64,000 bases of DNA from contig NZ_CP019698.1 of the NCBI RefSeq assembly GCF_002005145.1, positions 992,001 to 1,056,000 on the forward strand. Direction: 5' to 3'. Position 1 is the stretch's first letter. Every line of letters starts with the position of its first letter. The stretch is from Desulforamulus ferrireducens (GTDB lineage Bacteria; Bacillota; Desulfotomaculia; Desulfotomaculales; Desulfotomaculaceae). Of the stretch, positions 4,137 to 8,591 are shown in pieces. Under the pieces are notes generated by a model. That model had not been told where the DNA came from. It saw only the letters and a list, made by a program, of their open reading frames with translations, and searched no databases. Position numbers and translations under genes: made by a program.

Positions 4137-4373
4137 ATGGGGGCTGAAAAACAAACATTTGAAGAAGCATTGGCCAGACTGGAAGAAGTGGTAAGGGAGT
4201 TGGAAGGAAATCAACTTCCTTTAGATCGGGCTTTGGAATTATTTGCCGAAGGTATTAGCCTGTCCAAGTACTGCAACGGTTGTTTGGAACAAGCTGAGCA
4301 AAAAATTCAACTGCTCATGGCGGATGGCCAGTTGAAGGATGCCCCGGCAGAACTAATAGGGGGGAATCAATGA
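4137..4373 (+). CDS. xseB: Exodeoxyribonuclease VII small subunit
   Basis: 78 residues, the usual size for XseB. The family pattern [17 protein letters not shown], then [22 protein letters not shown] is clear; the protein is a short helical hairpin that binds XseA. The ribosome site is TTGGAGGT. The stop overlaps the ispA start (ATGATGA), so translation is probably coupled. Confidence 0.96.
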
Positions 4374-5257
4374 TGAACTTTGCCACAGAATTAAAAGCTT
4401 GGTCCAAACAGGTGGACGATGCCCTGGATCTCTATTTGCCTAAGGCAGAGGAATATCCAGCCACCATTCACGAAGCTATGCGTTATAGTGTCTTTGCCGG
4501 AGGTAAGAGGCTCAGGCCGGTTTTAGTATTGGCAGCCACCCAGGCGGTGGGTGGCGACGTGGCGAAAGTAATGCCGGTGGCCTGTGCTTTAGAGCTAATT
4601 CATACCTACTCCCTGGTGCATGATGATTTACCTGCCATGGATAACGATGATTTTCGCCGGGGACGACCCACCAACCATAAAGTATATGGGGAAGCCATGG
4701 CCATCTTGGTGGGGGATGCTTTACTGACCCATGCCTTTGAGCTCATTGCCCGCAGTGCAGAGGATTATCCTGCGGACAAGGTTAATACCGTAACTTTAGA
4801 AATTGCCTGGGCCGCAGGTTCCCGTGGTTTAATTGGCGGGCAAGTGGTGGACATGTTGTCAGAAAACAAGGCCATTACCGGTGAGGTGATGGAATATATC
4901 CATCGTCATAAAACAGGGGCGCTGTTTCGGGCAGCGGTACGGGCCGGTGCTATTTTGGGTGGTGCCAGTGAAGAGGAATTAAGCTGCCTGACCAGGTATT
5001 CCGAGCAAATGGGCCTGGCCTTTCAAATTAAAGACGACCTGCTGGATATCGAAGGTGATGAGGCTAAAATTGGTAAGCCGGTGGGCAGTGATCTGAAAAA
5101 TCAAAAATGCACCTACCCGTCTTTATATGGTTTGGAGCAAGCCAGAAACATGGCTCAGCAAGCAGCTGAGGCTGCCTGCGCAGAATTAAAAATTTTTGGT
5201 TCAAGGGCGGAATTTTTACGCTCCTTAGTGCATTTTATTATCAGTAGAGATCATTAA
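4370..5257 (+). CDS. ispA: Polyprenyl diphosphate synthase (farnesyl/geranylgeranyl type)
   Basis: 295 residues. The two aspartate-rich motifs of short-chain trans-prenyltransferases are present: [14 protein letters not shown] (first) and DDLLDIEGD (second), with the GGKRLRP substrate loop near residue 43. The enzyme condenses isopentenyl diphosphate with dimethylallyl and geranyl diphosphate to give farnesyl diphosphate for undecaprenyl and quinone chains. It overlaps xseB by four bases. The OLE RNA, oapA and dxs follow, the standard isoprenoid context of OLE loci. No intrinsic terminator is obvious after ispA, so read-through into OLE is possible. Two ATGs (4370, 4373) are equivalent candidates. 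Confidence 0.95.
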
Positions 5258-5375: not shown

Positions 5376-5404
5376 TTGAGATTGGCTAATTTAACGTGTA
5401 TAAT
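5376..5404 (+). promoter_or_regulatory. Sigma-A promoter for OLE RNA
   Basis: TTGAGA (5376-5381), a 17-nt spacer and a perfect TATAAT (5399-5404) predict a start near 5411. This matches the expected 5' end of the OLE RNA and gives it a promoter separate from the upstream ispA operon. Confidence 0.7.
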
Positions 5405-5410
5405 TCATAG

Positions 5411-6044
5411 CATGCTAAATAAATTAGCTCAAAGATTGCTTGTTACTTGAAAAATAAGTGATGCAGTATCCTAGTCAGTATGGTCTTTCTGAAGGCGGGC
5501 CTAAAAATCCGTCAAGGGCACATCGATGAAGTTCCTGGTGCTGGCTTTTGACGCCCAGTTGGGGGCTGGTACTGGGAGTTAAGGGGAAGGGGCGACCTGC
5601 AATGGCATGTGGGCATCGACCCCCTCCCCGTGGAGACCCAAGTGCGTGGGGAGTCGGAAACGGCGAACTATGGCTTGGTTGTTAACCTGCATGTGGTAGG
5701 AAGCTGCGTGCAGTGTAGCCTGACTTGAAGTGGCACTGGCGGATTCCTCTGGTACAATCATAGAATACGGGCCCGTAATCTATGATTGTGGGATGAAACT
5801 TTTGCTGCAACAGAGTCTAAGAAAGATGCGTACTGTTGAGGAAAACTCCTAGGCTGTCTGACACATGTCAGGGTAGGTCAGGGATTAAAGTGTGGACTAA
5901 GTGGTAATCTAGCCCTGAGAGCGGTGACGCCTCAGATAGGGTTTAAAGGGTAACCGCCGGTTTGGCGACAGCCGGTACCGCTATGGGAAAACCTGCTGGA
6001 CCTAAGCCACAACATTTACCTGACCTGCTACCACTTATTTAATT
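5411..6044 (+). ncRNA. ole: OLE RNA (ornate large extremophilic RNA)
   Basis: About 630 bases between ispA and oapA-dxs have no credible coding frame but strong helices. A perfect hairpin with CAATCATAGA/TCTATGATTG arms and an inner TACGGG/CCCGTA stem lies at 5755-5788. TAAGTGGTA (5898-5906) pairs exactly with TACCACTTA (6029-6037), closing a 3' domain. Size, structure, a preceding promoter and the ispA-OLE-oapA-dxs order fit OLE RNA, a very large structured RNA of anaerobic and extremophilic Firmicutes. It forms a membrane-associated RNP with OapA and is linked to stress tolerance in Bacillus halodurans (established knowledge). Assignment rests on locus and structure, not a covariance search; the 3' end is approximate and no U-run terminator is seen, so co-transcription with oapA is likely. 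Confidence 0.9.
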
Positions 6045-6059
6045 AACATATACCATGGG

Positions 6060-6653
6060 GTGAAATTTTTTTTGGGCAATCATAAGAAAAATATTTCGAG
6101 AAACTACTTGTTTTTAGTATCCATTGGCTCCTTTGTGTTAGCAGTTGTTTTTTCTTTGTTATCTGAGCTGATGACCAGTGTTGTAAAAAGTGTAATAATA
6201 TCCTTGGCAGGTTTGCTGTTTATTATACTTATTGGTATTCTGGCTGATATAATAGGCACTGCAGCTACTGCTGCCCAGGAGGCACCTTTTCATGCCAAAG
6301 CGGCTAAACGTGTTCGCGGTGGTAAGGAAGGTGTCTTTTTGTTAAGAAACGCTGATAAGGTTGCCAATATCTGTAACGATGTAATTGGTGACATTGTTGG
6401 CACTGTCAGTGGTGCGTTAGGGATTTCAATTGTGGTTAAAATAGTTAAAGAGAACCCCGGTATAGATGCTTTTTTTGCCAATATTGTGATTACCGCTTTG
6501 ATTGCTTCTTTTACGGTATCTGGTAAAGCATTGGGAAAAACACTAGCCATATCCAGGGCAAATGATGTAATATTCTTGGTAGGGAAGTTTTTTGCTTACC
6601 TGGAAAAACTTACTGGCAAAGGACTGGGAAAAAAAAGTCGCGCCAGGTCTTAA
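6060..6653 (+). CDS. oapA: OLE-associated protein A (OapA), membrane protein
   Basis: 197 residues with about four hydrophobic segments (near residues 15-33, 40-62, 115-132 and 139-157) and a strongly basic tail ending KSRARS. OapA is the conserved membrane partner whose gene directly follows OLE RNA; it binds the RNA and anchors it at the membrane (known for Bacillus halodurans). The basic loop HAKAAKRVRGGKEG (residues about 78-91) and the basic C-terminus are plausible RNA contacts (inference). The GTG start has no clear ribosome site; the coding frame begins only some 20 bases after the predicted end of the OLE fold, so the start may be a few codons later. dxs follows with 18 bases between. 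Confidence 0.88.
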   Translation: MKFFLGNHKKNISRNYLFLVSIGSFVLAVVFSLLSELMTSVVKSVIISLAGLLFIILIGILADIIGTAATAAQEAPFHAKAAKRVRGGKEGVFLLRNADKVANICNDVIGDIVGTVSGALGISIVVKIVKENPGIDAFFANIVITALIASFTVSGKALGKTLAISRANDVIFLVGKFFAYLEKLTGKGLGKKSRARS

Positions 6654-6671: not shown

Positions 6672-8591
6672 TTGGGCGTATTGCTAAAGAAAGTATTTAG
6701 CCCCCAGGATTTGCAACAATTTAATATAAAAGAGCTGCAGGCCTTAGCCGCCGAGATCAGGGAAGTTATTATTAATACGGTAGCGGAAACCGGGGGTCAC
6801 CTGGCCCCCAACCTGGGTGTGGTGGAGCTAACCATCGCCATACATCGGGTTTTTAATTCTGCCGTGGATCGTATTATTTGGGATGTAGGTCATCAGAGTT
6901 ATGTACATAAATTGTTAACCGGACGACTAACGCAGTTTCATACCTTGCGTCAACATGGAGGTATTAGCGGCTTTCCTAAACCAGAGGAAAGTATTCACGA
7001 TGCCTTTGCCACCGGTCACAGCAGCACTTCCATCTCTGCTGCCCTCGGCATGGCTTTGGGCAGGGATTTAAAGGGGCAAAAACACTCGGTGGTGGCAGTT
7101 ATTGGGGATGGTTCCATGACCGGCGGTATGGCCTTTGAGGCGATGAATTTTGCAGGTCACTCCAAAACCAACATGATTGTCATTTTAAATGATAATGAAA
7201 TGTCCATTGCACCCAATGTGGGGGCCCTTTCCGGTTACTTAAGCAGACTAAGGACTGATCCTAAATACTATAGGAGCAAAGATGAAATTGCTGAATTATT
7301 GCAAAAAATCCCCCATGGTTCCAAACTATTAAAAGTGGTGGATCGCTTAAAGGACAGTCTGAAGTATTTAGTAGTACCCGGTATGTTATTTGAAGAATTA
7401 GGTTTTACCTATCTGGGACCGGTGGATGGTCATGATATCAAAAGTGTGATGACGGTGTTACAGCAAGCCAAGGCAGCCACGGGACCGGTTTTAGTGCATG
7501 TGCTTACCCAAAAGGGTAAAGGGTATCTGCCGGCAGAACAAAACCCGGATCGTTTCCATGGGGTAGGCGCCTTTGATGTAGCCACAGGGGAAGTGAAAAA
7601 GGCCGCCGGTGCTCCCCCCAGCTATACCGAGGTGTTTGGTAAAACCTTGGTTAAGCTGGCACAGAGGGATGATAAAATAATTGGCATTACCGCAGCTATG
7701 CCCAGTGGCACAGGGCTTACCAACTTTGCCAAGGAGTTTCCCCAAAGATACTTTGATGTGGGCATTGCTGAACAACACGCGGTGACCATGGCAGCCGGCC
7801 TGGCCATGGCAGGCTATCGACCGGTGACAGCCATTTATTCCACCTTTTTACAACGTGCCTATGACCAGGTGCTGCATGATGTTTGTATGCAAAACCTGCC
7901 GGTGGTATTTGCCATGGATCGGGGTGGTTTGGTGGGTGACGACGGACCAACTCACCACGGAGTTTTTGATATTGCCTTTTTGCGCAATATTCCTAATATC
8001 GTACTGATGTCACCTAAGGATGAAAATGAGTTACAGCATATGCTGTATACCGCCCTTTGTCATGGCGGACCGGTGGCTGTTAGATATCCCAGAGGCAGTG
8101 GCGAAGGTGTTACCCTGGATGAAGAACTTAAGTGCCTGCCCGTTGGTAAAGGTGAAGTGTTACGGGAAGGCGATGACGTATTACTGTTAGCCATCGGAAA
8201 CATGGTGACGGAAGCCATGAAGGCTGCGGAAAAATTAAGCAGCCAAGGGATTGAGGCCACCGTGATCAACGCCAGATTTATGAAACCCCTGGATCAAGAT
8301 TTAATTTTGCACTATGCCCGCAGAATTAAAAAGGTGGTAACCCTGGAAGAACACGTACTCATGGGGGGCTTTGGCAGTGCTGTTCTCGAACTGTTTGAAG
8401 CGGAAAGACTGTACGATCTTAAGGTGAAACGCCTGGGTATTCCTGACCAATTTATTGAACACGGCAAACAGAGCATTTTACGAGCCAGCCTTGGTCTCAA
8501 CGCAGAGGGTGTTGTTGAGGCAGTGATGGGCCTGGGCAAGGAAATTAAGAAGGTGCAGAGGTTAAAGGCGGTTCTGGGCAGGAAGAACTAA
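6672..8591 (+). CDS. dxs: 1-deoxy-D-xylulose-5-phosphate synthase
   Basis: 639 residues, full length. This thiamine-diphosphate enzyme joins pyruvate and glyceraldehyde 3-phosphate, the first step of the MEP isoprenoid pathway that feeds IspA. Motifs: [11 protein letters not shown] (residues 75-85), the TPP motif [15 protein letters not shown] with its downstream NDNEMSI, and the transketolase-like [18 protein letters not shown] and [15 protein letters not shown] of the pyrimidine-binding domain. The TTG start has AAAGGAG 13 bases and GGTGG 6 bases upstream. It completes the ispA-OLE-oapA-dxs module. Confidence 0.97.

What the first reader, a model, noticed from the sequence alone, without database searches (positions are those of the whole stretch)
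5411..6060. OLE RNA-OapA module between ispA and dxs
A 630-base non-coding structured region followed by a small multi-helix basic membrane protein, flanked by isoprenoid genes, matches the OLE locus. Here it has a dedicated TTGAGA-17-TATAAT promoter and a perfect 9-bp long-range pairing (5898-5906 with 6029-6037). The oapA start is some 20 bases past this helix with no separate ribosome site, so OLE and oapA may be one transcript with processing between them.
Basis: partly seen in the sequence, partly recalled or inferred. Interest (0 to 1): 0.75.

Follow-up and report, generated by a model that had tools for sequence, protein, structure and literature searches.

The report
OLE RNA with its membrane partner

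Summary
Window 5442-6050 (+) matches Rfam OLE (RF01071) end to end at 530.7 bits (cut-off 50). It is the only copy in this Desulforamulus genome and is followed directly by oapA (DxxxD intact) and dxs. OapB, a YbxF/OapC homologue and bS21 are encoded elsewhere in the genome.

- The promoter (TTGAGA-17-TATAAT, 5376-5404) holds up. Similar promoters sit upstream of OLE in most of 128 loci.
- The "perfect 9-bp long-range pairing" exists as letters but is not a conserved helix. The strand 6030-6040 is the 3' half of terminal stem P1 and covaries with 5452-5462. The internal strand is nearly invariant and shows no covariation.
- oapA starts at TTG 6072, with a strong Shine-Dalgarno (6057-6063), not at GTG 6060 without one.
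- No terminator separates OLE from oapA here, so co-transcription followed by processing is plausible.

Side finding: in relatives of the same order OLE has left oapA and become a standalone gene with its own promoter and, in most, an intrinsic terminator just after P1. OLE is therefore a discrete trans-acting RNA.

The parts
4370..5257 (+). ispA, farnesyl diphosphate synthase (upstream neighbour)
   Evidence: NF045485 393 bits, PF00348
5376..5404 (+). sigma-A type promoter TTGAGA-17-TATAAT; predicted RNA start about 5411
   Evidence: 11/12; 0 of 200 shuffles score as high; promoters conserved upstream of OLE
5442..6050 (+). OLE RNA (Rfam match; P1 to P1 is 5452-6040)
   Evidence: RF01071 530.7 bits; single copy in the genome
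5452..5462 (+). 5' strand of terminal stem P1
   Evidence: covaries with 6030-6040 in 130 sequences; pairs 5454:6038 and 5456:6036 E=0, 5455:6037 E=0.25 in tree-based null
5501..5508 (+). A-rich loop CUAAAAAU (P4 loop, dimer bridge B1 in the cryo-EM structures)
   Evidence: sequence; role from PMC12286853
5769..5774 (+). P9 loop palindrome GGGCCC (dimer kissing loop)
   Evidence: columns 5769:5774 co-vary; role from PMC12286853
   Evidence: nearly invariant; no covariation with 6029-6037; 5900:6035 is a standard pair in only 23% of sequences
5964..5969 (+). P13 loop GGCGAC, part of the published OapB-binding region
   Evidence: binding site from PMC9723947
6030..6040 (+). 3' strand of terminal stem P1
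6057..6063 (+). Shine-Dalgarno GGGGTGA of oapA
   Evidence: duplex with anti-SD -10.6 kcal/mol
6072..6653 (+). oapA, TTG start, 193 aa, DxxxD at D103/D107
   Evidence: OapA found directly downstream of OLE in all 131 loci sampled
6672..8591 (+). dxs (downstream neighbour)
   Evidence: TIGR00204 908 bits

Best explanation
This is a canonical full-length OLE RNA gene followed by oapA. SHOWN: sequence and structure membership; closure of the RNA by terminal stem P1 (5452-5462 with 6030-6040); an upstream sigma-A-like promoter; an oapA reading frame with its own Shine-Dalgarno and TTG start; and genes for OapB, a YbxF/OapC homologue and bS21 in the genome. INFERRED: RNA polymerase starts near 5411 (with read-through from ispA also possible), transcribes OLE and continues into oapA and dxs. 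OLE folds into domain 1 (P3-P9, a dimer in published cryo-EM) and domain 2 (P1, P2, P10-P15). Its mature ends form at or just outside P1 by nuclease trimming, since there is no terminator. As published for Halalkalibacterium, OapA dimers would bind near P2 and P4a and hold the RNA at the membrane, with OapB on P13 and OapC/bS21 on domain 1, giving a stress-response ribonucleoprotein.
For: RF01071 530.7 bits, full model. 284 of 398 Bacillota genomes hold OLE and 289 of the same 398 hold OapA. Promoters: 59% of 128 loci exceed the 1% null level. oapA start: TTG 6072 with SD -10.6 kcal/mol, same arrangement in relatives. OapB matches PDB 7k9b 'OLE-associated protein B' (E 2.7e-10) and lies between map and infA; the YbxF/OapC homologue lies before rpsL; bS21 is present. 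DxxxD invariant in 131 OapA, as stated for OapA in PMC11332333.
Against: No transcript, end mapping or protein binding could be measured here.
Confidence: 0.9

Rival explanations
1. The reader's long-range helix 5898-5906/6029-6037 is a real structural element, either instead of P1 or as a switch with it.
For: Nine perfect pairs; in 4 of 9 Desulforamulus genomes (5461:6031 = A.C without a repairing insertion) the internal duplex is more stable than P1 as an isolated duplex.
Against: No covariation at any of the nine pairs; the internal strand stays fixed while the 3' strand changes with the 5' end. P1 is the more stable duplex in 126 of 130 sequences. Sister species keep A-U in P1 and have a weaker internal duplex.
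Confidence: 0.04
2. The region is a cis-acting leader (riboswitch-like) of oapA or dxs rather than an independent RNA.
For: OLE lies directly upstream of oapA in all 131 loci sampled; no terminator lies between them in the window; 16 of 131 loci have a terminator-like hairpin before oapA.
Against: In six relatives OLE is absent from an intact ispA-oapA-dxs locus and sits elsewhere in the genome with its own promoter and a downstream terminator hairpin. Literature shows OLE as an abundant RNP component that binds OapA (PMC12265935, PMC12054373).
Confidence: 0.06
3. oapA is translated from GTG 6060 without a ribosome site, after RNA processing.
For: GTG 6060 is the first in-frame start codon of the listed ORF.
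Against: SD energy +0.9 kcal/mol there, against -10.6 for TTG 6072; same-order relatives share the TTG with a strong SD, and most lack an in-frame start at the GTG position.
Confidence: 0.04

Closest known systems
OLE RNA, Rfam RF01071 (type species Halalkalibacterium halodurans)
   Same: Full-length model match, P1-P3 and domain 2 helices, A-rich P4 loop, GGCC P9 loop, P13 OapB region, ispA-ole-oapA-dxs neighbourhood, argR nearby
   Different: Nothing categorical. One A.C mismatch in P1 shared by part of Desulforamulus and a leader of about 40 nt between predicted start and P1. The Rfam covariance model leaves the 5' and 3' ends unpaired.
OapA (OLE-associated protein A)
   Same: Directly downstream of OLE, about 190 aa, DxxxD (D103/D107), one profile recovers it across Bacillota
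   Different: No Pfam or NCBIfam model hits it at 0.001. H. halodurans numbering is D100/D104 (PMC9723947).
OLE variants 1 and 2 (PMC11332333)
   Same: The standalone OLE RNAs of relatives share shortened P9, as in variant 1
   Different: The window's OLE is full-length, not a variant. The standalone forms keep P13 and differ in the P4, P5 and P6 loops.

Membership tests
OLE RNA (RF01071) | covariance-model match above the gathering score over the full model | tested here: met
   530.7 bits vs 50, positions 1-616
OLE RNA (RF01071) | long-range stems of domains 1 and 2 (P1, P2, P3, P10-P13) supported by covariation | tested here: met
   42 coupled pairs at E<=0.5 in a 130-sequence, tree-aware scan, including P1, P2, P3, domain 2 stems
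OLE RNA (RF01071) | adjacent oapA gene | tested here: met
   oapA 6072-6653; 131/131 sampled loci
OLE RNA (RF01071) | dimer contacts: A-rich P4 loop and palindromic P9 loop | tested here: met
   CUAAAAAU 5501-5508, GGGCCC 5769-5774 present as sequence; dimerisation itself not tested
OLE RNA (RF01071) | known protein partners OapB, OapC, bS21 encoded in the genome | tested here: met
   OapB-like (7k9b, E 2.7e-10), YbxF/L7Ae-like before rpsL, bS21
OLE RNA (RF01071) | abundant ~600-nt transcript at the membrane | not testable with these tools
   needs RNA-seq/northern/FISH
OapA | DxxxD motif | tested here: met
   D103/D107, invariant in 131; motif named in PMC11332333
OapA | multi-pass membrane protein that binds OLE | not tested
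   hydrophobic stretches visible; no topology prediction or binding assay run
   no coupling; 5900:6035 paired in 23%

The most novel reading that the evidence does not exclude
In a sub-clade of Desulforamulus (this species included) the 3' end of OLE has two competing partners, terminal stem P1 (weakened by an A.C mismatch) and the conserved domain 2 strand UAAGUGGUA, so OLE's end could switch between closed and open forms.
Probability: 0.04. Interest if true: 0.55.

Novelty: already known. Interest (0 to 1): 0.3.

Why it matters
The locus is an ordinary, well-preserved member of a famous RNA class of unknown biochemical function. The work clears up three points of anatomy (P1 rather than the internal helix, the oapA start and ribosome site, the conserved promoter). 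It also gives a natural experiment: in relatives OLE has moved away from oapA into its own transcription unit, with a promoter and usually a terminator just past P1. This marks the natural 3' boundary of the RNA and argues that OLE acts in trans. Those standalone RNAs change the loops used for RNA dimerisation, so they may be useful for testing whether dimerisation and OapA linkage are separable.

Tried and rejected
A new tertiary contact for the conserved internal segment 5881-5912: best partners did not reach significance. Looked for unexplained coupled pairs in domain 2: all significant pairs fall in known or expected stems. GTG 6060 start: rejected. Named-genome scan with a single OapA gave only 9 close loci, so organism names are few. 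Widner 2020 (PMC7363126) is not in the library, so published P1 coordinates were not read directly; that the terminal stem is the published "P1" is inferred from the naming of domain 2 (P1, P2, P10-P15 near the ends, PMC12265935).

Full report
WHAT IS THERE. The Rfam scan of the whole window gives one match, OLE (RF01071), at 5442-6050 on the + strand, 530.7 bits against a cut-off of 50, over all 616 model positions. It is the only copy in the 3.24-Mb single-contig genome. Neighbours are xseB, ispA (FPP synthase), OLE, oapA, dxs, tlyA, NAD kinase, mnmM, argR and recN. The genus is Desulforamulus: the contig of D. aeronauticus DSM 10349 (218,437 bases) equals genome G151:C36, listed as same genus. 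argR near ole is a known pattern (PMC10898510).

HOW COMMON. 284 of 398 Bacillota genomes drawn evenly hold OLE, and 289 of the same 398 hold OapA. In the window's order 101 of 113 genomes hold OLE. Literature reports 2,822 hits (PMC11332333). This is an ordinary member.

THE 9-BP PAIRING. I collected 131 OLE loci and took the 5' end, the internal UAAGUGGUA and the 3' end of each. The 3' strand follows the 5' end: for example L007 has GGGAUAGGGUGAU with AUCACCCUAUCCC, and L080 has GGCAAAAGGUU with AACCUUUUGCC, while the internal strand stays AGUGG. A tree-aware covariation scan (G-test with average-product correction; null evolved on a FastTree tree with the observed number of changes per column) found 42 coupled pairs at E<=0.5. 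My scan is home-made and its E-values rest on 12 simulated alignments, so they are coarse.

In this species P1 has an A.C mismatch at 5461:6031, and the 3' strand happens to match the internal segment perfectly. As isolated duplexes the internal pairing is more stable (-12.1 against -9.4 kcal/mol), which is true in only 4 of 130 sequences. In the genus, five of nine genomes have A.C at that position by alignment, one of them with an inserted base that restores pairing with a bulge; the other four have A-U. All 22 other order members fetched and listed have A-U. A switch between the two pairings cannot be excluded for this sub-clade, but nothing favours it.

PROMOTER. TTGAGA-17-TATAAT is at 5376-5404. 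In 128 loci the best promoter score upstream of OLE averages 13.0 against 9.2 (sd 1.5) for shuffled sequence; 59% exceed the 1% null level, and the -10 hexamer typically ends 20-35 bases before the conserved GCAG. In the window this distance is 58, so about 40 nt of leader precede P1. Published work describes the H. halodurans cluster as one polycistronic RNA (PMC12265935), so both sources of transcription are possible.

OAPA START. GTG 6060 has no Shine-Dalgarno. TTG 6072 lies 8 nt after GGGGTGA (6057-6063), -10.6 kcal/mol. The ten same-order loci printed all start at an equivalent TTG with a strong site, and all 131 loci have a start with SD energy of -5 or better. TTG is chosen for 83 of 129 oapA genes, against 10 of 35 other ORFs in the same loci and 7 of 44 long ORFs in the window. 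A weak start codon may hold OapA below the level of the RNA on the same transcript (inference). The protein carries D103xxxD107, invariant in 131; DxxxD is described as distinctive of OapA (PMC11332333).

PARTNERS. OapB lies between map and infA and matches PDB 7k9b "OLE-associated protein B" (E 2.7e-10). A YbxF/OapC homologue lies just before rpsL. bS21 is present. The published OapB region (P13, GGCGAC loop) and the dimer loops are intact in sequence.

ONE TRANSCRIPT OR TWO. No terminator lies between OLE and oapA in the window; 16 of 131 canonical loci have a terminator-like hairpin there, against 3 in shuffled sequence. The cleanest evidence comes from relatives. In family f142 and in G178, both of the same order, the ispA-oapA-dxs locus is intact but OLE is missing from it (L185, L187, L189, L192, L194, L196). 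OLE sits elsewhere, in G428/G429 antisense between rpmA and spo0B-obg. G429 has both the canonical and the standalone copy. The standalone genes have a promoter-like sequence 27-46 nt before the conserved element (TATAAT in five, TAAAAT or TAGAAT in four) and a hairpin just after P1; eight of nine passed my terminator scan, and the ninth, L195, has an imperfect hairpin with a T-run. So OLE can be a discrete RNA ending just past P1, and cis linkage to oapA is not required. In canonical loci such as the window the 3' end must then come from processing, which is inferred.

VERDICT.

Noticed in passing
L181, L182 (genome G429): Two full-length OLE genes in one genome: canonical ispA-OLE-oapA-dxs (517.8 bits) and a standalone OLE (407.2 bits) antisense between rpmA and spo0B-obg. 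It looks like a duplication caught before loss of the original copy.
   Followed up: partly
L183-L196 (genomes G425-G428, G430-G432, G178): OLE relocated away from oapA into its own transcription unit with a promoter-like sequence and a terminator-like hairpin; in the six genomes where the ispA-oapA-dxs locus was read it lacks OLE. G428 and G430 (84% and 97% complete) show no OapA at all.
   Followed up: partly
L182, L183, L184, L186, L188, L190, L191, L193, L195: All standalone OLE RNAs share loop changes at dimer contacts: P4 loop GCUAAAAAU for CCUAAAAAU, P5 loop GCC(A) for GCCCA, P6 loop CAAAGG or CAAGGG for CAAUGG; most also have a short P9 without the GGCC palindrome.
   Followed up: partly
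window 6072 and 131 oapA genes: oapA uses TTG as start codon in about 64% of species, against 10 of 35 control ORFs in the same loci.
   Followed up: partly
L033, L043 between OLE and oapA: A strong hairpin (GGGCUGCUG...CAGCAGCCC) between OLE and the oapA ribosome site with no clear U-run; a candidate processing or attenuation element.
   Followed up: no
genome G000:C1:606489-607070: A CNNM-domain protein (E 2e-52) is present; MpfA-type CNNM proteins are reported to anticorrelate with OLE (PMC11332333). Whether this one is MpfA was not tested.
   Followed up: no
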